Shown here in pieces: positions 10,492 to 41,483 of a stretch of 46,259 nucleotides of DNA (its first letter is position 1; each line of letters begins with the position of its first letter). The stretch comes from Actinomycetota bacterium (GTDB lineage Bacteria > Actinomycetota > Actinomycetes > Actinomycetales > Kineosporiaceae). The notes below the pieces were generated by a model, which saw nothing but the letters and a program-made list of their open reading frames with translations, did no database searches and had not been told where the DNA came from. The stretch is taken from positions 1-46,259 of the forward strand of contig JAUPKJ010000101.1 of the NCBI GenBank assembly GCA_030837505.1, given 5' to 3'. The translations under genes were made by a program, and so were the position numbers.

Positions 10492-10597
10492 TCCTGTGCA
10501 CGACAGCTCGGTCCTGTGCACGACAGCGTCCTGTGCACGACAGCGTCCTGTGCACGACAGCTCGGTCCTGTGCACGACAACCTGGTCCTGTGCACGA
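10492..10597. repeat. Six copies of a TCCTGTGCACGA repeat between convergent genes
   Basis: TCCTGTGCACGA starts at 10492, 10512, 10529, 10546, 10566 and 10586, with periods of 20, 17, 17, 20 and 20 bp. The full unit can fold into a small hairpin, CTGT-GCACG-ACAG. The block lies in the 252-bp gap between the stop codons of the WecG-type gene and rmlA, which converge. It has no spacers of CRISPR size. Confidence 0.9.
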
Positions 10598-10664: not shown

Positions 10665-10709
10665 TCAGCCGACCATGGCCCCTTCAGACAGGTTCCCTTC
10701 AGCCGACCA
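10665..10709 (-). repeat. Duplicated rmlA stop-codon segment
   Basis: The last codons and stop of rmlA (TGGTCGGCTGA on the minus strand, 10699-10709) recur exactly at 10665-10675, 34 bp downstream. Short CTGAAGGG repeats lie between the two copies. The second copy is outside the gene. Confidence 0.7.
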
Positions 10710-11637
10710 GGGCCTGCGCGGGGTGCGAGGGGGCCGGGCGCGGCCTTGCGCGGCCGGCGGGCACCTGCACCCCGGTCTCCAGCAGGGCCTGCAGGTAGGC
10801 TCCGTAACTGCTGCGGGCCATGCCCTCTGCCAGTCGGGACAGGTGCCGGTCGTCGATCCAGCCCCTGCGCCAGGCGACCTCCTCGACACAGCCGATCTTC
10901 TGCCCCTGCCGGGCTTCGATGACCTGGACGTACTCCGAGGCGTCCATCATCGACTGGACCGTGCCGGTGTCCAACCAGGCCGTGCCGCGTTCCAGGACCG
11001 TGACATGCAGCCGTCCCCGGTCCAGGTAGGTCCGGTGGACGTCGGTGATCTCCAGTTCCCCGCGGGGACTGGGGCGTACCGCGCGCGCGATGTCCACCAC
11101 GTCGTTGTCGTAGAAGTACAGGCCCGGGACGGCGTAGTTGCTCCGGGGCCTGGCGGGTTTCTCCTCCAGGGAGGTGACGGTGCCGTCGGCGTCGAACTCC
11201 ACGACCCCGTAGGCCTGGGGGTTGCTGACGTGGTAGGCGAAGACATGACCGCCGACGAGATCGGTGTGCTTCTCCAGGGTGTCGTCGAGGGCCGGTCCGT
11301 GGAAGATGTTGTCCCCCAGGGCCAGGGCCACGGGTTGATCGGCGATGAACCCGTCGCCGATCAGGAAAGCCTGGGCCAGGCCCTGCGGTTCGGCCTGGAC
11401 GGCGTATTCGATCCGCATCCCCAGCCACTGCCCGTCCCCCAACAGACGCCGGAACTGTTCACAGTCCTGGGGAGTCGTGATGACGAGGATCTCGCGGATC
11501 CCCGCGGTCATCAGGGTCGACAGCGGATAATAAATCATTGGTTTGTCATGAATGGGCATCAGCTGTTTGCTGATTGCCAGGGTGATGGGATGCAGCCGCG
11601 TTCCGGTGCCCCCCGCCAGGATGATGCCGCGCATCAT
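10699..11637 (-). CDS. rmlA: Glucose-1-phosphate thymidylyltransferase
   Basis: RmlA makes dTDP-glucose from dTTP and glucose-1-phosphate, the first step to dTDP-L-rhamnose. The 312-aa protein has the nucleotide-binding [11 protein letters not shown] signature, [18 protein letters not shown], the [14 protein letters not shown] substrate stretch, ALGDNIF with its metal-binding Asp, and [14 protein letters not shown]. The start was chosen at ATG 11637 (followed by a second ATG) because AGGAGAGG lies just upstream; the 16-residue extension upstream of it is not conserved in the family. It follows rmlC by 96 bp on the same strand. The tail after [12 protein letters not shown] is Pro/Arg-rich and longer than usual. 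Confidence 0.96.
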
Positions 11638-11733
11638 TCGCCTCTCCTGTGGGAACATCCCCAGCGGGAGGTGGATCCGCCGCACGGATCACCCGACGAG
11701 GGGACGCTCATGGCCGGTGACGTCCCCGGGGCC

Positions 11734-13572: not shown

Positions 13573-14307
13573 ATGACCGTTCCGGCGACGATCCACGCCG
13601 ACGCCGACGTCGACCCCACGGCCGACGTCGGCGAGGGCACCAAGGTCTGGCACCTGGCCCAGATCCGGCAGGACGCGAGGGTGGGGCGGGACTGCGTCCT
13701 GGGACGCGGTGCCTACGTGGGCCCGGGCGTCCGGATCGGAAACCAATGCAAGATCCAGAACTATGCCCTCGTCTACGAACCCGCCGTGCTCGAGGACGGC
13801 GTGTTCATCGGACCCGCGGCCGTTCTGACCAACGACCAGAACCCCCGGGCCGTCACCCCGGACGGCCGCCTGAAGGACGAGTCCGACTGGAACGCCGTGG
13901 CCGTGCTGGTCCGGCGGGGGGCCGCCGTGGGAGCCCGCGCCGTCTGCGTCGCGCCCGTGACGATCGGGCGATGGGCCCTGGTGGCGGCCGGGGCCGTCGT
14001 CACCCGCGACGTACCGGACTTCGCACTGGTCGCCGGGGTGCCGGCCCGCCGTATCGGCTGGGTGGGACACGCCGGGGTACGGCTGGTGCCGGCCGGGCCC
14101 GGACGCTGGAACTGCCCGGTCACCGGGCGACAGTACGCGCAGACCCCCGCCGGACTGACCGAGGACCACACCGTGACCGAGGACCACACCCTGACCGAGG
14201 ACCACACCGTGACCGAGGACCACGCCGACGGCCTCGTGGGAGAGCACGGGCCCGGGACCGGGCAGTGCGACGATCAGCCGCGCAACCGTTCGAGCAGCGC
14301 CGAGTAG
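13573..14307 (+). CDS. Hexapeptide sugar N-acetyltransferase (WbpD/WlbB type)
   Basis: A left-handed beta-helix acyltransferase of the group that acetylates 3-amino sugars on nucleotide carriers. Hexapeptide repeats run through residues about 8-160. TKVWHLAQIRQDARVG, QNYALVYEPAVLEDGVFIGPAAVLTND and GVPARRIGWVG match WbpD/WlbB and QdtC-like proteins. After the helix a Cys-containing stretch leads to a nonconserved tail built of four 6-residue repeats (LTEDHT/VTEDHT). The start ATG 13573 has GAGAAGGAG upstream. The final 34 bp overlap the convergent GH10 gene. With the DegT aminotransferases and the Gfo/Idh dehydrogenase it forms a plausible acetamido-sugar pathway. Confidence 0.9.
   Translation: MTVPATIHADADVDPTADVGEGTKVWHLAQIRQDARVGRDCVLGRGAYVGPGVRIGNQCKIQNYALVYEPAVLEDGVFIGPAAVLTNDQNPRAVTPDGRLKDESDWNAVAVLVRRGAAVGARAVCVAPVTIGRWALVAAGAVVTRDVPDFALVAGVPARRIGWVGHAGVRLVPAGPGRWNCPVTGRQYAQTPAGLTEDHTVTEDHTLTEDHTVTEDHADGLVGEHGPGTGQCDDQPRNRSSSAE
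14155..14226 (+). repeat. Four tandem 18-bp units in a C-terminal tail
   Basis: Units at 14155-14172, 14173-14190, 14191-14208 and 14209-14226 share TGACCGAGGACCAC and alternate CTG/GTG at their first codon. They encode LTEDHT/VTEDHT repeats at the dispensable C-terminus of the acetyltransferase. Confidence 0.9.
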
Positions 14308-16387: not shown

Positions 16388-19300
16388 GTGACCAGTACTC
16401 TGCGTTCTCCCGATGGCCCCCGGGCTACGGCCCGGTCCGTTTTCGTGACCCTGGGTGCCCGTGTCCCGCGTGCCGTCCTGCGCGGGGCGGCGATGCTCTC
16501 GACACTCATCGTCACGACCGTCATGATCACAGGAATCCCCTCGGGGGGCTCCTCCGAGGCCGATGCGAGTACTACGGATCCGTGTCAGGAACCGACGAAT
16601 CCGGTGGTGTGCGAGAACTCGAGAACCGGATCCTCCCGCAACACCTGGGACGTCTCGGGGGTCGGGGACCCCGGTATCCAGGGATTCAGCACGGACATCA
16701 GTGTGAACGCAGGTTCCCCCATATCTTTCAAGATCAAGACTTCGGTCTCCTACGAGATCGACATTTATCGTCTCGGCTGGTACCAGGGGAACGGCGCCCG
16801 CAAGATCGCCGACGTGACGCCGACGGCCCGCACCCAGCCGACCTGTTTGGAGGACGTCACCACCGGTCTGTTCGACTGCGGCAACTGGGCGGTCTCCGCA
16901 ACGTGGGACACCCCGAGCACCCTGGTGTCCGGGGTCTACCTCGCCCTCTTGACCAGGGCGGACAACGGCGGCCGCAGTCACATCCCGTTCGTGGTGCGCA
17001 ACGACGCCGGGCACTCGGACCTGGTCTTCAAGACCCAGGACGCCACCTGGCACGCCTACAACACCTACGGCGGCTCGGACCTCTACACCGGTTCCCCCGT
17101 CGGCCGCTCCTACAAGGTCAGCTACAACCGTCCCTTCGCGACCCGTGCCGACTGGGACGGTCGGGACTTCCTGTTCTCCAACGAATACCCCATGATCCGT
17201 TTTCTGGAGCGCAACGGATACGATGTGAGCTATATCACGGATGTCGATGCGGATCGGGCCGGGTCGCTCCTGACCAATCACGGGACCTTCCTGTCGGTCG
17301 GCCATGACGAGTACTGGTCCGGTCCTCAGCGCGAGCACGTGGAGAACGCCAGGGACGCCGGGGTCAATCTGGCCTTCTTCAGCGGCAACGAGTTGTACTG
17401 GAGAACTCGCTGGGAGAAGAGCATCGACACCTCCCGGACCGATCACAGGACCCTGGTCTGTTACAAGGAGACCTGGGCCGGGGACAAGATCGATCCCTCC
17501 TCCGAATGGACGGGGACCTTTCGGGACCTGCGTTACACCACCTCCTCCGAGGTGATCCCTGAGAACGCCCTCAGCGGCACGATCTACATGGCCAACCACG
17601 ACGACCTGCCGATTCGTGTCCCGGCGGAGCAGGGAAAAGTCCGTTTCTGGAGGAATACGACCGTGGCGGAACAAAACCCCGGACAGGTCGCCGAACTGCA
17701 GGAACACACCGTCGGGTACGAGTCCGACGAGGACCTGGACAACGGCTACCGCCCGCCGGGACTGTTCCACCTCTCGACGACGACGGGCTCCACCCCCGAA
17801 CGCGTCACGACCTACGGCCCGGACGTCGCCCCGGGCACGACCACGCATCACATGACGATGTACAAGGCTGCGAGTGGGGCGCTGGTCTTCTCCGCCGGCA
17901 CCATCCAGTACGCCTGGGCCCTGGACCCTGTGCACGACGGCGGTGACGACACGACCGATCCCGCCCTGCGACAGGCGACGATCAATGTCCTGGCGGACAT
18001 GGACGCCCAGCCCCTGACCATCATGTCCGGGATGGTGGCCACGAACCCCTCCACCGACACCACACCGCCCACCTCGCAGATCTCTTCTCCGGCCGCGGGC
18101 AGCAGCCACGGCAACGGTGGCGAGCTCACGGTCACGGGGACGGCGACCGACAGCGGCGGGGGCATCGTCGCGGGGGTCGAGGTGTCCATCGACGGGGGCG
18201 AGACCTGGCACCCGGCCACCGGGACGACCAGCTGGAGCTACACCGCGCCTGCGACGGGCAACGGCAGCGTCTCGCTGCGCAGCCGTGCCGTCGACGACAG
18301 CGGCAACTCCGAGACGGCCACGGCCGGTCGATCGGTGTCGGTCACCTGTCCGTGTTCCCTGTTCGGCTCACGTGCCCCGGAAAAGGCCGACAGCGGGGAC
18401 GACAGCGACGTCCAGCTCGGGGTGCGTTTCCAACCCCTGACGAACGGCACGATCACAGGGGTTCGTTTCTACAAGAGCGCGCTGAACACCGGTACCCATA
18501 CGGGGTTCCTGTGGTCGGCCGGAGGCACCGAGCTGGCCACGGGCACGTTCACGAACGAGACGTCCTCGGGGTGGCAGACCCTGAACTTCGCCTCGCCGGT
18601 CGCCGTGACCGCCGGCACCACCTATGTCGCCTCCTACCGGGCACCCCACGGGCACTACGCCGACTCGAGCCTGTTCTTCGACTACCGCGACCACGTCGCG
18701 GCCCCGCTCAAGGCCCTGCGTTCGAAGGGAACCTCGTACAACGGCGTCTGGGGGCTGCGGGAGGAGTTTCCCAACCGGACCTACAACCTGGACAACTACT
18801 GGGTCGATGTCCTGTTCACGACCAGTGGGGGGGACACGACCCCGCCCACCGTCTCCGGGACGGCCGCGACGACCGGGGCCACCACGGCCAGGGTGACATG
18901 GACCACGAACGAAACGGCCGACTCGAGCGTCCTCTTCGGCACCAGCGCCTCCTCGTTGGACCGGACGGCGAGCGCCCCCGGGTCGCGCACCTCCCACGAG
19001 GTGGAGCTGTCCGATCTGGCCCCCGAAACGACCTACCACTACCGTGTGCGGTCCGCCGACCTGTCCGGCAATGTCACCACGCATCCCGCCACGGGGAGTC
19101 CGCCGCTGACCTTCACGACCGACGCCTCCGGGGGCGGTCCCGATTGCCCCTGCTCGGTGTTCAGTACGACCCAGATGCCTCAGACACCCGACTGCCAGGA
19201 CTCCGGCGCGGTGGAGCTGGGGATGCGTTTCGTCCCTGCCGCGAACGGCACCGTGACGGGGGTCCGTTTCTTCAAGTCGGCGGCGAACACCGGTACTCAC

Positions 19301-21181
19301 ACCGGTTCGCTGTGGACGGTCGGGGGGACCCGTCTGGCCAAGGGGACGTTCACGAACGAGACGTCCTCGGGGTGGCAGACCCTGGCCTTCGCCTCCCCCG
19401 TGAGTATCAAGCAGGGCAGTACATATGTCGTGTCGTACTACGCGCCGCGGGGCCATTATTCGTCCGACACCAGCGCCTTCACGTCCGACATCGTCAGCGG
19501 GCCTCTGACGGCTCCGGTCGCGGGCAACGGGGTCTACCAGTACGGCGGGGGGTTCCCGACGAAGACCTGGTCGAGCAGTAACTATTGGGTCGATGTCGTG
19601 TTCGACACCGCGGCGGTTCCCGACACGAGCGCTCCGGCGATCACCGAGGTGGACGCGGTCGCTGCCGAGAGCACTGCGGCGACCGTTTCGTGGACGACCG
19701 ACGAACTGGCCTCGTCCGAGGTGGCCTTCGGGACCTCCCCGGACGCCCTGGGGGACAACCCGGTCTCGACGTTCGGCACGACGACCGAGCACTCGGTGCC
19801 CCTGTCGGGCCTGCAGCCGCAGACCACCTACTACTACCGGGTGACCTCGCAGGACGGCACGGGGAACACGACCGTTCACCCGCCGTCGGGAAGTCCCCCG
19901 CTGTCTTTCACGACCCCCGGGACGTCGACGGGCCCCTACTCGTTGTTCACGGCCCAGGACGGGCCGGAGACCCTCGATTCCCAGGAGTCGACCAGGGTCG
20001 AGCTGGGGGTGCGTTTCGTGCCGTCGGTGAGCGGCTCCGTGACCGCGATCCGGTTCTACAAGGCCGTCGGGAACACGGGGGCGCACACGGGTACCCTCTG
20101 GTCGGCGTCGGGGACGGTCCTGGCCACGGGCACCTTCACCGACGAGACAGCCTCCGGGTGGCAGAACCTGACCCTGGCGGCCCCCGTGGCCCTCACAGCC
20201 GGGACCACCTACGTCGCCTCCTACCTGGCTCCCGACGGCCACTACTCGTTGACGGGACACGGGTTCGACACGGATCTCGTCAAGGGGCCGTTGACCGCGC
20301 CCGCCGAGGTCAACGGGGTTTACCGTTACGGCGGCGGGTTCCCGAACGAGACCTGGGCCGCGACCAATTACTGGGTCGATGTCGTGTTCGATCCGGCCTC
20401 GGACCCGGACACCACCGCACCGGTGATCTCCGGGGCGAACGCTTCCGCGGGTTCCGCGACCTCGGCGACGGTCACCTGGACGACCGACGAGTCGGCCACG
20501 GCGAAGGTGTTCCACGGGACGACCGCCGATCTGGGCCAGGAGACGACCGCCACGGGCCTGGGCACGGAGCACCAGGTGAGCCTGACCGGGCTGGCCGGGG
20601 GGACCACCTACTACTACCGGGTCTCGTCGCAGGACTCCGCGGGGAACAGCACGGTCTTCCCGCCGTTGTCGCAGCCTCCTTCGACCGTGATGACGCCGGC
20701 GCAGGGCTCCGCGTGTCCCTGCACGTTCTTCGGTTCCTCCCAGGTTCCGGGGACGGTGGATTCCGGGGACGGCGCAGCGGTCGAACTGGGGTTGCGGTTC
20801 CGGCCGTCCACCGACGGCACGATCACCGGGATCCGGTTCTACAAGGCCGCGGCCAACACCGGTGAGCACCTCGGGACCCTTTGGTCCTCGACCGGGGCGG
20901 TCCTGGCCGGTGGAACCTTCACGGGGGAGACGGAATCCGGGTGGCAGACCCTCACTTTCCCCACCCCGGTGCCCGTCACCGCCGGGACGGTGTACGTCGT
21001 TTCGTACTACGCGCCCACGGGGCACTACTCGGTGGACAACGACCACTTCACGGCCGATGTGACCGCCGGGCCGCTCGTGGCCCCCGGCTCGGCCAACGGG
21101 GTCTACCTCTACGGCGGGGGGTTCCCCACCCAGACCTGGGCGAGCAGCAATTACTGGGTGACCCCGGTGTTCACCGATTGA
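16388..21181 (+). CDS. 1597-aa secreted protein: DMFase-like domain, Ig/FN3 and four DUF4082 modules
   Basis: Start GTG 16388. A hydrophobic leader at about 33-52 suggests export. Residues about 80-550 match the N,N-dimethylformamidase beta-subunit-like (DUF6605-type) domain: YEIDIYRLGWYQGNGARKIA, FLSVGHDEYWSG and NLAFFSGNELYWRTRW. An Ig-like domain (about 553-650, TPPTSQISSPAAGSS) follows. Four DUF4082 modules lie at about 652-812, 918-1074, 1181-1336 and 1441-1597, separated by three FN3-like domains that share VTWTTxE and TTYYYRV. Modules carry ELGVRF, GVRFYKS, TNETSSGWQTL and SNYWVDVVF. It has no membrane anchor at the C-terminus, so it is probably released or bound to the surface glycan. 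An enzymatic role in amide cleavage is not established for secreted members. Confidence 0.88.
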   Translation: MTSTLRSPDGPRATARSVFVTLGARVPRAVLRGAAMLSTLIVTTVMITGIPSGGSSEADASTTDPCQEPTNPVVCENSRTGSSRNTWDVSGVGDPGIQGFSTDISVNAGSPISFKIKTSVSYEIDIYRLGWYQGNGARKIADVTPTARTQPTCLEDVTTGLFDCGNWAVSATWDTPSTLVSGVYLALLTRADNGGRSHIPFVVRNDAGHSDLVFKTQDATWHAYNTYGGSDLYTGSPVGRSYKVSYNRPFATRADWDGRDFLFSNEYPMIRFLERNGYDVSYITDVDADRAGSLLTNHGTFLSVGHDEYWSGPQREHVENARDAGVNLAFFSGNELYWRTRWEKSIDTSRTDHRTLVCYKETWAGDKIDPSSEWTGTFRDLRYTTSSEVIPENALSGTIYMANHDDLPIRVPAEQGKVRFWRNTTVAEQNPGQVAELQEHTVGYESDEDLDNGYRPPGLFHLSTTTGSTPERVTTYGPDVAPGTTTHHMTMYKAASGALVFSAGTIQYAWALDPVHDGGDDTTDPALRQATINVLADMDAQPLTIMSGMVATNPSTDTTPPTSQISSPAAGSSHGNGGELTVTGTATDSGGGIVAGVEVSIDGGETWHPATGTTSWSYTAPATGNGSVSLRSRAVDDSGNSETATAGRSVSVTCPCSLFGSRAPEKADSGDDSDVQLGVRFQPLTNGTITGVRFYKSALNTGTHTGFLWSAGGTELATGTFTNETSSGWQTLNFASPVAVTAGTTYVASYRAPHGHYADSSLFFDYRDHVAAPLKALRSKGTSYNGVWGLREEFPNRTYNLDNYWVDVLFTTSGGDTTPPTVSGTAATTGATTARVTWTTNETADSSVLFGTSASSLDRTASAPGSRTSHEVELSDLAPETTYHYRVRSADLSGNVTTHPATGSPPLTFTTDASGGGPDCPCSVFSTTQMPQTPDCQDSGAVELGMRFVPAANGTVTGVRFFKSAANTGTHTGSLWTVGGTRLAKGTFTNETSSGWQTLAFASPVSIKQGSTYVVSYYAPRGHYSSDTSAFTSDIVSGPLTAPVAGNGVYQYGGGFPTKTWSSSNYWVDVVFDTAAVPDTSAPAITEVDAVAAESTAATVSWTTDELASSEVAFGTSPDALGDNPVSTFGTTTEHSVPLSGLQPQTTYYYRVTSQDGTGNTTVHPPSGSPPLSFTTPGTSTGPYSLFTAQDGPETLDSQESTRVELGVRFVPSVSGSVTAIRFYKAVGNTGAHTGTLWSASGTVLATGTFTDETASGWQNLTLAAPVALTAGTTYVASYLAPDGHYSLTGHGFDTDLVKGPLTAPAEVNGVYRYGGGFPNETWAATNYWVDVVFDPASDPDTTAPVISGANASAGSATSATVTWTTDESATAKVFHGTTADLGQETTATGLGTEHQVSLTGLAGGTTYYYRVSSQDSAGNSTVFPPLSQPPSTVMTPAQGSACPCTFFGSSQVPGTVDSGDGAAVELGLRFRPSTDGTITGIRFYKAAANTGEHLGTLWSSTGAVLAGGTFTGETESGWQTLTFPTPVPVTAGTVYVVSYYAPTGHYSVDNDHFTADVTAGPLVAPGSANGVYLYGGGFPTQTWASSNYWVTPVFTD

Positions 21182-21212
21182 GTCGGTGTTCACCGTGAGC
21201 CGGTGTTCACCG
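21165..21212 (+). repeat. CGGTGTTCACCG repeated three times across a stop codon
   Basis: CGGTGTTCACCG occurs at 21165-21176, 21184-21195 and 21201-21212 (periods 19 and 17 bp). The first copy encodes the end of the giant DUF4082 protein (VFTD, then TGA at 21179-21181); the other two follow the stop. Confidence 0.85.
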
Positions 21213-21520
21213 ATCGACGGCGACGGCGCGGGAGGGACAGCGGGCGATGCATGAGCATCCGGTCACACTCGGCGAATCACATCCATATCGGGGCCCTTCG
21301 CCGTAGGCTGGCACCGGTATCGCCTCCCGGATCGACCGGCCGCGGGTCCCGGACAGGCGTTTCGATCCCTGCTCGTCCCGTCGTTGTTCCCGCAACGCCC
21401 GCCCCACCGTGCCCGGATCCCGCAGCACCATGTCCGGGTTCCGCCCTGTCCGCCCGTCCCCGCCGATCTGTCGGTCGGCACCGTGTTCCCCCCAGAACAA
21501 CACTGTGAAGGACGACGCCC
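21213..21520. other. 308-bp gap before the dehydrogenase operon
   Basis: This gap contains the expected promoter of the 21521-24852 operon. I see no hairpin terminator for the upstream gene other than the repeats at 21165-21212, and no convincing -35/-10 pair. The last ribosome-site-like stretch is GAAGGA at 21507-21512, just ahead of ATG 21521. Confidence 0.4.
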
Positions 21521-22816
21521 ATGAGCCAGGCGAACCCCGCAACCGACTCCGCCGCACCAGCAGACACCGCCGGAGGTGCCACGACCTCCTCGCGGTCGGC
21601 GCCCCGGCGGCGTTCCGGAGCCGCCGGGTCCCAGGGAACAACTGTGCAGGGAACCACTGTGCAGGGAACCACTGTGCAAGGAACCGCTGTGCAGGGAACA
21701 ACTGTGCAGGGAACAACTGTGCAGGGAACAACTGTGCAGGGAACTACGGCGAAGGGGGCGGCGGGGGATCCGGCGGCGCCGGTGCGCATCGCCGTCGTCG
21801 GGGCGGGCTACTGGGGGCCCAACCTCGTGCGCAACGCCCGGTCCTGCGCGCACACCGAACTGCACGCCGTCGTGGACCTGGACGTCGAACGGGCTCGCCT
21901 GGTCGCCGGGGCTGACCCGACGGTGCGGGCGTGCGGGTCGGTCGACCAGGTCCTGTCCGACCCGGCGATCGAGGCCGTCGCGGTCGCGACCCCGGCGGCC
22001 ACCCACCTGCCCGTGGCCCTGGCGGCCCTGCGGGCCGGCAAACACGTTCTGGTCGAGAAGCCACTGGCCTCCAGCTGGGCCGAGGGCCGGCGTCTGGTCG
22101 AGGAGGCCGACGCGCGGGGTCTGACCCTCATGTGCGATCACACGTACTGCTACACGCCGGCCGTCCAGCGGATCCGGCAGCTCGTGCTCGACGGGACCCT
22201 CGGCGACATCCAGTTCGTGGATTCGGTTCGGATCAACCTGGGGCTGGTGCAGCGGGACATCGACGTCCTGTGGGACCTGGCCCCCCACGATCTGTCGATC
22301 CTGGACTTCGTCCTGCCCGAGGGGTGCAGTCCGGTGGCGGTGGCGGCGCACGGCGCGGACCCGATCGGTTCGGGCCGGGCCTGCGTGGCCTACCTGACGC
22401 TGCAGCTGCCCGGGGGGGCCATAGCGCATTCCCATGTGAACTGGCTCAGCCCGACGAAGGTCCGTACCACGATCATCGGGGGTTCGCAGCGGACCCTCGT
22501 GTGGGATGACCTGAATCCCGTGCAGCGATTGTCGATCTACGACCGGGGGGTCGATCTGAAGGAGGCCGATTCCCTGGACGTCGACGACCGACGACAGATG
22601 ACCATTTCGTACAGGTCGGGGGACATGGTGGCCCCGGCCCTGCAGGAGCGGGAGGCATTGCAACTCATGATGACGGAATTCGCCACGAGCATCCGCCAGG
22701 GCCGACGGCCCATCACCGACGGACTCGCGGGTCTGCGCGTCCTGGACGTGCTGGAGGCCGCCAGCCGCAGCCTGGAGTTCCAGGGCGCCGTCGTGCCGCT
22801 GAGGAACCAGCGGTGA
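21521..22816 (+). CDS. Gfo/Idh/MocA nucleotide-sugar dehydrogenase with repeat extension
   Basis: An NAD(P)-dependent sugar oxidoreductase resembling WbpB/WlbA, which oxidises C3 of UDP-GlcNAc uronate to give the keto substrate for a DegT aminotransferase. The Rossmann loop is GAGYWGPN (94-101). The family EKP motif sits at 179-181 (LVEKPLASS), and DVLWDLAPHDLSILDFVL carries the conserved His of the active site. Residues 1-87 are an extra Ala/Ser/Thr-rich extension containing a 15-bp repeat that encodes QGTTV seven times; the normal family start would be near VRIAVVG (88). An alternative start inside the repeats would be GTG codons, one per unit, all in frame. The last bases (GTGA) overlap the epimerase start. 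Confidence 0.92.
   Translation: MSQANPATDSAAPADTAGGATTSSRSAPRRRSGAAGSQGTTVQGTTVQGTTVQGTAVQGTTVQGTTVQGTTVQGTTAKGAAGDPAAPVRIAVVGAGYWGPNLVRNARSCAHTELHAVVDLDVERARLVAGADPTVRACGSVDQVLSDPAIEAVAVATPAATHLPVALAALRAGKHVLVEKPLASSWAEGRRLVEEADARGLTLMCDHTYCYTPAVQRIRQLVLDGTLGDIQFVDSVRINLGLVQRDIDVLWDLAPHDLSILDFVLPEGCSPVAVAAHGADPIGSGRACVAYLTLQLPGGAIAHSHVNWLSPTKVRTTIIGGSQRTLVWDDLNPVQRLSIYDRGVDLKEADSLDVDDRRQMTISYRSGDMVAPALQEREALQLMMTEFATSIRQGRRPITDGLAGLRVLDVLEAASRSLEFQGAVVPLRNQR
21632..21751 (+). repeat. Eight tandem 15-bp units encoding QGTTV
   Basis: Units of CAGGGAACAACTGTG start every 15 bp from 21632 to 21737; the first seven are near-perfect and the last is degenerate. Each unit ends in GTG, so each supplies a potential in-frame start codon preceded by AGGGA. 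The opposite strand is also open through the block, reading a VVPCT-type repeat. Confidence 0.93.
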
Positions 22817-26014: not shown

Positions 26015-26557
26015 ATGTGCCGGTGTTCACTACGGGAAGGGCGGTACCGCGTGGGGGACGGCCTGTTGTTGGCGGTCGGCAGCAATCCTCCGCAGGGCAC
26101 GAGCGGTGAACGCACGCGGGGCCGTCTGGAGCAGGCACGGGTGCTCCTCGGTTTCGAACTCGTGAGACTGGTCAATTTGTTCGCGCTGCCCACTTACCGC
26201 ACGGGCGGGGTCGTCGAGGCCGGGCAGTCGCCCCAGGGCTGGCAGCAGGCCCGGCGTGAACTCGCTCCGGCCTTGGAAGAGGCGACGGCTGCGTTGCTGG
26301 CGTACGGGGTGCAGGCTCCGTCCGGGCCGGCTCGGGAACATCATCGCCGTCAGGTCGGGTGGTTGGAAGCCGAACTCGTCTCCCGGAAACTGCCCGTGTA
26401 TTGGGTCGGCGGGGCACCTCGGCATCCGTCCCGCTGGCAGCGGCACACCTTCCGCCAGTATCCGGACCTCTGCTATGCCGAGGGGCTCAAGCTCTCGCTC
26501 ACGTTGCGCCCGGACCCGGCGCCGCCGGACGAGCCCTCGCCGGACCTGTCCTCGTAG
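26015..26557 (+). CDS. DUF1643 family protein
   Basis: A 180-aa protein with the DUF1643 pattern: LLAVGSNPPQGTSG (family NP motif), a helix RLEQARVLLGFELVRLVNLFAL, a middle helix region and a C-terminal YWVGGAPRHPSRWQRHT. DUF1643 proteins are small cytoplasmic proteins of unknown activity found in phages and accessory regions. ATG 26015 follows GAGGGG (26006-26011). It sits 7 bp after the interrupted frame, so it belongs to the nuclease operon. The final codons encode PDLSS and a TAG, a unit then repeated twice more after the stop. Confidence 0.7.
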   Translation: MCRCSLREGRYRVGDGLLLAVGSNPPQGTSGERTRGRLEQARVLLGFELVRLVNLFALPTYRTGGVVEAGQSPQGWQQARRELAPALEEATAALLAYGVQAPSGPAREHHRRQVGWLEAELVSRKLPVYWVGGAPRHPSRWQRHTFRQYPDLCYAEGLKLSLTLRPDPAPPDEPSPDLSS

Positions 26558-26593
26558 CCGGACCTGTCCTCGTAGCCGGACCTGTCCTCGTAG
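26540..26593 (+). repeat. Three 18-bp units, each carrying the stop codon
   Basis: CCGGACCTGTCCTCGTAG occurs at 26540-26557, 26558-26575 and 26576-26593 without a single mismatch. The first copy is the end of the DUF1643 gene (PDLSS-stop); the next two put two more in-frame TAG codons behind it. Confidence 0.95.
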
Positions 26594-26717: not shown

Positions 26718-27719
26718 ATGCCCAGGGGCAGGCCGTCGCGCGCCACCGTCTACGCCCGCCTCGATGAGGCGATCAAGGACCTGCACGAGCGCTTCGGGGG
26801 TCTGCCCACTCCGGTGGAGTCGGTGGGTATCTGGGACGAATTGTGGCACCAGGAAGCGCATCACTCGACCGCGTTGGAGGGCAACACTTTGGTCCTGCGG
26901 CAGGTCCGCCTCCTGCTCGACGAGGGGCGCGCGGTCGGGTCCGGAGAACTGCGCGAGTACACGGAGGTCACGGGCTACGCCGACGCCGCGCGATGGGTCT
27001 ACGGCCAGGCCCTGGAACCGGGGGACTGGAGCACCGGTGACCTGGTGTGTCTTCAGGAGGTCCGGTCGATTCACCACCGGGTTATGTCCCCGGTGTGGTC
27101 CGTCGCCCCGCACCCGCAGGCCGAGGACGGGGAAAGCCCCGGCAGCTTCCGCCGCCACGACATCAGACCCTTTGCACAGGGGACGACACCGCCGCCGTGG
27201 CCGGAGGTCCCCTCGCGGATGCGGGACTGGGTCGATCTGGTCAATACGACGAGGGACCTGAACGACCGACCTTTTCCGGAGATACTGGCGGAGATTCACA
27301 ACCTTTTCGAGCAGATTCACCCTTTCCTCGACGGCAACGGTAGAACCGGACGTCTCCTGCTCAATCTTGTACTGGTTCGCCGGGGCTGTCCGCCGGCAAT
27401 CATCCACAAGAACCAACGCCTTGCCCACCTCGCGGCCATGCACAAGGCCGACAACGGCGACCACGGTCCCCTGGGAGAGCTCATCGCGCGAGCTGTCACC
27501 GACAACCTGAACCGTTTCGTGGTTCCCGCCGTCGCCGGGCCCTCCCAGCTCGTTCCGTTGGCGAGTCTCGTCGGTTCCGCGTCGGGGATCAGCGCGAACG
27601 CCCTGAGGGTCGCGGCGCTCCGCGGACGCCTGCGGGCCCGCCGGGCACCGAACGGGAGCTGGCTCAGCTCCCGGCAATGGGTCGAGGAATACCTCGACTC
27701 CCGCCAGAAGCACACCTGA
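26718..27719 (+). CDS. Fic family protein with N-terminal inhibitory motif (class II)
   Basis: A 333-aa Fic protein. The active loop HPFLDGNGRTGR starts at H201 with all catalytic and nucleotide-binding residues intact, which predicts AMP transfer from ATP to a protein hydroxyl. An autoinhibitory [S/T]xxxE[G/N] motif, STALEG, is at residues 50-55 (E54), which defines class II. A C-terminal winged-helix-like segment (about 285-330, SGISANALRVAALRGRLRAR) may bind DNA. ATG 26718 follows GAGGAGG. A TACAAT at 26658-26663 within TTGT-N5-ACAA is a possible -10/operator. Class II Fic proteins act as housekeeping regulators or toxins; adjacency to the nuclease-DUF1643 genes places it in an accessory or defence-like island. 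Confidence 0.93.
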   Translation: MPRGRPSRATVYARLDEAIKDLHERFGGLPTPVESVGIWDELWHQEAHHSTALEGNTLVLRQVRLLLDEGRAVGSGELREYTEVTGYADAARWVYGQALEPGDWSTGDLVCLQEVRSIHHRVMSPVWSVAPHPQAEDGESPGSFRRHDIRPFAQGTTPPPWPEVPSRMRDWVDLVNTTRDLNDRPFPEILAEIHNLFEQIHPFLDGNGRTGRLLLNLVLVRRGCPPAIIHKNQRLAHLAAMHKADNGDHGPLGELIARAVTDNLNRFVVPAVAGPSQLVPLASLVGSASGISANALRVAALRGRLRARRAPNGSWLSSRQWVEEYLDSRQKHT

Positions 27720-40802: not shown

Positions 40803-41483
40803 CTCGTCGACCGGCTCGACTGTTTCAACCGGCTCGACTGTTTCAACCGGCTCGACCGGTTCGACCAACATGCTCAGCAGCTTTCCCATCAGTTCCCGGG
40901 GCACCGTTCCCTCCATGGGAGCCTGCTCGATGAACAGCCCGTTGGCGAGCGCGAGCACCGAGACGACCACGTGGTCGACGGGAAGGAGGCAGCGGGCTCC
41001 TCTGCGAGCCGTCTCCTTCCGGATGAAATCGGCTATGTGCCGGTGGATCACGGTCCGGACGGCGGTGTAGCGGCGGCGTGCCTCCGGTTCGCGTACTGCT
41101 CTGCCCCAGAACTCCAGGAACAGGATCTGCCAGTCCGAGTCCGTGGTGAGGGCGTCGTACAGGGCATCACCCAGGGCCTCTATCTGCTCGGCAGCAGTTC
41201 CTTTTACGGGTACGTCCAGGGCCAGAAGGGTCTTGATCCGGTCCATGACCCGCTCTTCCAACAATGCGAAGAACAAATCGTTCTTGTTCTTGAAACGGGA
41301 GTAGACAGCTCCTTTGGTGAATCCGGCGGCGGCTGCCACCTCGTCGAGGCTGGCGCCCTCGACGCCTTTTCGGGCCCAGGTGTGCAGCGCTGCATCCAGG
41401 ATCCGTGAGCGGACCTGGGCAGGGGGGACTCGGTTCGTAGGGCTTCGTTGACTCTCCGTGTCCGGTTGTCCGGGAAAGTTCAC
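40788..41483 (-). CDS. TetR family regulator of the adjacent exporter
   Basis: A 231-aa repressor. The helix-turn-helix is RSRILDAALHTWARKGVEGASLDEVAAAAGFTKGAVYSRFKNKNDLF. The C-terminal domain has LFLEFWGRAVREPEARRRY, typical of TetR_C. Start GTG 41483 follows GGAGCGG. The final residues are a Val-Glu-Pro-Val/Thr repeat (three 18-bp units at 40811-40864) absent from ordinary TetR proteins. Divergent from the DHA2 exporter; a palindrome over that gene's -10 element (41574-41591) is the obvious operator candidate. Confidence 0.93.
   Translation of the reverse strand: MNFPGQPDTESQRSPTNRVPPAQVRSRILDAALHTWARKGVEGASLDEVAAAAGFTKGAVYSRFKNKNDLFFALLEERVMDRIKTLLALDVPVKGTAAEQIEALGDALYDALTTDSDWQILFLEFWGRAVREPEARRRYTAVRTVIHRHIADFIRKETARRGARCLLPVDHVVVSVLALANGLFIEQAPMEGTVPRELMGKLLSMLVEPVEPVETVEPVETVEPVDESAGG
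40811..40864 (-). repeat. Three 18-bp units at the 3' end of the TetR gene
   Basis: CCGGCTCGACTGTTTCAA occurs at 40811-40828 and 40829-40846, with a diverged copy at 40847-40864. In frame they encode VETVEP-type repeats just before the stop. Confidence 0.88.

What the first reader, a model, noticed from the sequence alone, without database searches (positions are those of the whole stretch)
26540..26593. Perfect tandem repeat that multiplies a gene's stop codon
Three exact 18-bp copies carry the last five codons and the TAG of the DUF1643 gene. The same geometry, a stop-codon segment copied downstream, occurs at rmlA (10665-10709) and the 1597-aa DUF4082 gene (21165-21212). Three cases in 46 kb suggest a mechanism rather than chance, for example slippage or template switching initiated near gene ends, or selection for back-up stops.
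Basis: partly seen in the sequence, partly recalled or inferred. Interest (0 to 1): 0.72.

Follow-up and report, generated by a model that had tools for sequence, protein, structure and literature searches.

The report
Ordinary tandem duplication across stop codon
A short piece of DNA carrying the end of a gene has been copied head to tail three times in a repeat-rich actinobacterium; a genome-scale test shows such copies land on stop codons no more often than on the non-coding DNA next to genes, so this is ordinary DNA stutter in a place where it does no harm and not a special stop-codon mechanism.

Summary
The array is real: three exact 18-bp copies at 26540-26593, the first carrying the last five codons and TAG of a DUF1643-like ORF (…PDEPSPDLSS*PDLSS*PDLSS*). 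The 1597-aa gene (DUF4082 repeats) also ends in a 2.8-copy array, but its copied stops are out of frame. The rmlA case is weak: 8-bp and 11-bp repeats, no array called.

I sampled 1.07 Mb of the same genome (24%). Stop-spanning arrays are common (26 of 637 genes) and exceed uniform placement (24 against 8.4). But they occur as often as expected if arrays fall evenly over true intergenic DNA plus stop-spanning positions (16 observed, 15.1 expected). Their periods keep the frame in only 25% (83-87% in coding DNA), and the next in-frame stop is no closer than in other genes. Back-up stops and initiation at gene ends are therefore both unsupported.

Exact repeats carry extra matching bases (mean 5.0 nt against 0.8 for blunt copying), which fits microhomology slippage or template switching. 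A duplication spanning a stop leaves the stop in copy 1 (22 of 26) and the protein unchanged, so it survives; duplications over starts are depleted. Strain copy-number variation could not be tested. The finding is ordinary, although the genome is repeat-rich.

The parts
26540..26593 (+). Three exact 18-bp tandem copies CCGGACCTGTCCTCGTAG; copy 1 carries codons PDLSS and the TAG stop
   Evidence: unit found nowhere else in the genome as an exact 21-mer
26523..26539 (+). Degenerate older repeat just upstream (CGCCGGACGAGCCCTCG, protein PDEPS), probably the seed of the array
   Evidence: TRF row 26523-26590; protein tail PDEPS-PDLSS
26015..26557 (+). DUF1643-like ORF (180 aa); its tail PDPAPPDEPSPDLSS lies beyond the region shared with homologues
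21164..21214 (+). Imperfect 2.8-copy array across the TGA (21179-21181) of the 1597-aa DUF4082 gene; copied TGA out of frame
   Evidence: the G001 orthologue ends without an array
16388..21181 (+). 1597-aa protein: DMFA2_C, PhoD/Pur_ac_phosph_N, four DUF4082 stretches
10666..10714 (-). Weak short repeats around the rmlA stop (8 bp at 15 nt, 11 bp at 34 nt); not an array by TRF
10699..11685 (-). rmlA (glucose-1-phosphate thymidylyltransferase, NTP_transferase)

Best explanation
The 26540-26593 array is a neutral short tandem duplication. Inferred origin: DNA polymerase slipped or switched template at a few bases of microhomology, copying an 18-bp unit twice more, probably seeded by an older imperfect PDxxS-coding repeat just upstream. 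Shown: this happens throughout the genome, and arrays spanning stop codons are as frequent per available position as arrays in true intergenic DNA. Inferred reason for survival: when a tandem duplication spans a stop codon, copy 1 keeps the reading frame and stop, so the protein is unchanged and the extra copies become harmless 3' sequence. A duplication over a start separates the gene from its ribosome-binding site and is removed by selection. One inside a gene survives only if its length is a multiple of three. The stop codon is a permissive site, not a hot spot.
For: Density: 16 stop-spanning arrays against 15.1 expected (gaps <=500 nt), 13 against 13.5 (gaps <=300 nt), with the same agreement in G010 and other actinobacteria. 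Array coverage at the stop 50 per mille [32-71], against 42-51 per mille at 63-180 nt downstream and 12-23 per mille in the last 120 nt of coding sequence. Frame filter: period divisible by 3 in 87% of CDS arrays, 83% in N-terminal extensions, 36% in short intergenic gaps, 25% of stop-spanning arrays. The stop lies in copy 1 in 22 of 26; random placement over the same arrays would give about 11 (my estimate from copy numbers). Starts are depleted: 1 observed, 7.6 expected under uniform placement. Microhomology: mean 5.0 extra matching nt against 0.8 expected, >=3 nt in 61% against 7%. The array lies in a tail beyond the conserved domain, and two homologues lack it. Orthologues of the rmlA and DUF4082 genes in relative G001 lack arrays at their ends, as expected of recent lineage-specific events.
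Against: Coverage 18-48 nt past stops is about 1.7 times that further downstream in this genome, a mild unexplained excess, strongest between convergent genes. With 44 arrays in the decisive test, a hot spot of up to roughly 1.7-fold cannot be excluded. Genes were called with my own codon model, not a curated annotation, and only 24% of the genome was sampled. Part of the microhomology signal could come from decayed third copies.
Confidence: 0.88

Rival explanations
1. Selection for back-up stop codons: copies are kept because they catch ribosomes that read through the first stop.
For: In the DUF1643 array both extra TAGs are in frame, and rmlA has an in-frame TGA five codons on.
Against: Only 6 of 24 stop-spanning arrays keep the frame. 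The next in-frame stop is no nearer than in other genes (median 48 against 56 codons, p = 0.51). The DUF4082 copies are out of frame. A systematic study found no selection for additional stops in eubacteria (PMC6764699).
Confidence: 0.03
2. A mechanism that starts duplications at gene ends, for example replication-transcription conflict or R-loops near terminators, makes the first ~50 nt after a stop a mutational hot spot.
For: Array coverage 18-48 nt after stops is 78-83 per mille against 42-51 further on, and 116-146 between convergent genes.
Against: Stop-spanning counts fit uniform placement in permissive DNA. No such peak is seen in the pooled other actinobacterial samples. Weaker constraint just past gene ends explains it equally well. 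Units carry no excess of inverted repeats.
Confidence: 0.07
3. The array is a member of a dispersed repeat family (MIRU-like) that inserts at stop codons.
For: Mycobacterial interspersed units are known from memory to overlap stop and start codons; only an analogy here.
Against: The unit occurs nowhere else in the genome as an exact match, and the units of the 24 stop-spanning arrays listed have different sequences and lengths of 11-45 nt.
Confidence: 0.01
4. Assembly artefact of a fragmented draft genome.
For: The assembly has 434 contigs.
Against: The array is 54 bp, shorter than ordinary reads, and similar arrays occur in the single-contig relative G010 at a similar density.
Confidence: 0.01

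Closest known systems
Bacterial VNTRs / short satellites (tandem repeats with units of about 10-60 bp)
   Same: Head-to-tail near-identical units, in both non-coding DNA and in-frame coding DNA, enriched in periods divisible by 3 when coding (as in the prokaryote survey PMC6749651)
   Different: This genome is denser in them than the other actinobacterial loci sampled here, by my own counts; the survey's thresholds differ, so densities cannot be compared directly
Additional (fail-safe) stop codons
   Same: Extra in-frame stops follow the primary stop in the DUF1643 array
   Different: No genome-wide excess of in-frame stops in array-bearing genes; selection for such stops was not found in eubacteria (PMC6764699)
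MIRUs of mycobacteria (from memory)
   Same: Repeats overlapping the stop codons of genes
   Different: MIRUs are one dispersed sequence family; here each array has its own unit

Membership tests
Bacterial VNTR / short tandem repeat | Head-to-tail copies of one unit far beyond chance | tested here: met
Bacterial VNTR / short tandem repeat | Unit private to the locus, not a dispersed element | tested here: met
   exact search of the genome finds only this place
Bacterial VNTR / short tandem repeat | Copy number varies between strains | not testable with these tools
   no second genome of the genus is held among the relatives searched
Fail-safe additional stop codons | Extra stop in frame with the primary stop | tested here: met
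   met for DUF1643 and one TGA at rmlA; not met for DUF4082
Fail-safe additional stop codons | In-frame copies enriched over out-of-frame copies | tested here: not met
   25% of periods divisible by 3; next in-frame stop no closer
MIRU-like dispersed repeat | Same sequence at many loci | tested here: not met
DUF1643 (PF07799), host gene | Score above the Pfam gathering cut-off | tested here: inconclusive
   15.0 bits against 22.5, but a 36%-identical homologue scores 35.3

The most novel reading that the evidence does not exclude
The first ~50 nt after stop codons, most strongly between convergent genes, is a modest hot spot for birth of 10-25 bp tandem duplications in this lineage, beyond what relaxed constraint explains.
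Probability: 0.07. Interest if true: 0.5.

Novelty: new member of a known kind. Interest (0 to 1): 0.17.

Why it matters
Mainly as a caution. Stop-spanning repeats look purposeful, and they exceed a uniform-placement null about threefold. The excess disappears once the background is limited to positions where a duplication leaves proteins intact. The geometry itself (copy 1 keeps the stop; starts are depleted) is a clean illustration of how selection filters neutral duplications.

Tried and rejected
My first gene caller put a false antisense gene over rmlA and was replaced by a six-frame model. The idea that units are small palindromes (GGACctGTCC, CGGTGttCACCG) was tested and is chance for intergenic and coding units; stop-spanning units were at most slightly above shuffles. 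An apparent excess of periods divisible by 3 in 'intergenic' arrays (61%) proved to come from N-terminal coding extensions and probable missed genes; short true gaps give 36%. NucS loss as the cause of repeat richness was considered and rejected as an explanation: NucS does not correct indels (PMC8228993), and G010, which has NucS, is as repeat-rich in exact arrays.

Full report
Observation. The 18-bp array at 26540-26593 is exactly as described: three identical copies of CCGGACCTGTCCTCGTAG, with ORF 26015-26557 ending in the TAG of copy 1. Shuffled versions of the genome sample produce no array of TRF score 80 or more, while the real sample has 106 and this array scores 110. The ORF is a DUF1643-like protein: sub-threshold to Pfam itself, but 36% identical to a protein that passes. 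Its last ~15 residues lie beyond the region shared with homologues, and neither homologue has an array at its end. The preceding codons PDEPS resemble the repeated PDLSS, and TRF extends a degenerate repeat to 26523, so an older 15-nt coding repeat probably seeded the 18-nt one (inference).

The other two cases. The DUF4082 gene ends in an imperfect 2.8-copy array (21164-21214); the copies are 19 and 17 nt apart, and no in-frame stop follows within 30 codons, so the copied stop could not act as a back-up. At rmlA there are only an 8-bp and an 11-bp repeat, and no array is called.

Genome test. I took 1.07 Mb (24%) of the same genome, called genes with a six-frame codon model, and ran TRF. At score >=50 there were 24 stop-spanning arrays against 8.4 under uniform placement, but also 153 intergenic against 70, and only 1 over a start against 7.6. 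So the excess is shared by all non-coding DNA. Limiting the background to short true gaps, with possible N-terminal extensions trimmed, plus stop-spanning positions, gives 13 observed against 13.5 expected (gaps <=300 nt) and 16 against 15.1 (<=500 nt). G010 and the mixed actinobacterial loci agree. Coverage at the stop itself is 50 per mille, equal to that 63-180 nt downstream and above the coding tail.

Back-up stops. If extra stops were selected, copies should keep the frame. They do not: 25% of stop-spanning periods are divisible by 3, against 36% in short gaps and 83-87% in coding DNA. The next in-frame stop is at a median of 48 codons in array genes and 56 in others (p = 0.51). A published survey reached the same conclusion for eubacteria in general (PMC6764699).

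Mechanism. Exact arrays with two to three copies carry a mean of 5.0 extra matching nucleotides beyond two copies, where blunt duplication predicts 0.8; 61% have at least 3 nt against 7% expected. This fits slippage or template switching at microhomology, with the caveat that some may be remnants of third copies. Survival geometry: the stop lies in copy 1 in 22 of 26 arrays, as it must if the duplicated segment spanned the stop and the protein was left unchanged. In-frame duplications inside genes are visible in the window itself: TEDHTV x4 near the end of the 13573-14307 gene, VEPVET near the end of the 40788-41483 gene, and TTVQG x8 near the start of a Gfo/Idh/MocA-type oxidoreductase, which the G001 orthologue lacks.

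Genome context. Exact arrays reach 117 per Mb here, 130 in G010, 55 in G001, 25 in other actinobacterial loci and 8 in the remaining loci. Repeat richness is therefore shared with at least one family member, and nothing ties it to a stop-codon process.

Limits. The sample is a quarter of the genome, gene ends are computed, the decisive test rests on 44 arrays (a hot spot of less than about 1.7-fold would be missed), and no second strain was available for copy-number comparison. A mild excess of arrays 18-48 nt after stops remains unexplained.

Noticed in passing
G000 (whole genome): No NucS (PF01939) hit, although 17 of 18 genomes searched have it. A full-length protein query also found nothing, and the gene that adjoins NucS in several relatives is missing too, so one assembly gap and a real loss cannot be told apart.
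   Followed up: partly
window 21632-21744: In-frame 15-bp x 7.5 array encoding TTVQG repeats in an N-terminal extension of a Gfo/Idh/MocA-type oxidoreductase gene; the orthologue in G001 lacks it.
   Followed up: partly
window 14156-14227 and 40810-40856: Further 18-bp in-frame arrays close to the 3' ends of genes (TEDHTV x4; VEPVET x2.6), lengthening protein tails.
   Followed up: partly
window 10492-10597: A 106-bp intergenic array (about 5.6 copies of a ~20-bp unit TCCTGTGCACGACAGCCGG) between the 9616-10446 gene and rmlA.
   Followed up: no
window 26718-27719: A Fic/DOC family protein is encoded directly downstream of the DUF1643-like gene.
   Followed up: no
G000 C62 and C68: Two nifH-family genes above the curated cut-off; only one other of 13 family genomes (G005) has any, suggesting a nitrogen fixer.
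   Followed up: no
sampled genome, 18-48 nt after stop codons: Array coverage about 1.7 times that of farther downstream DNA, strongest between convergent genes; not seen in the other genomes sampled.
   Followed up: partly
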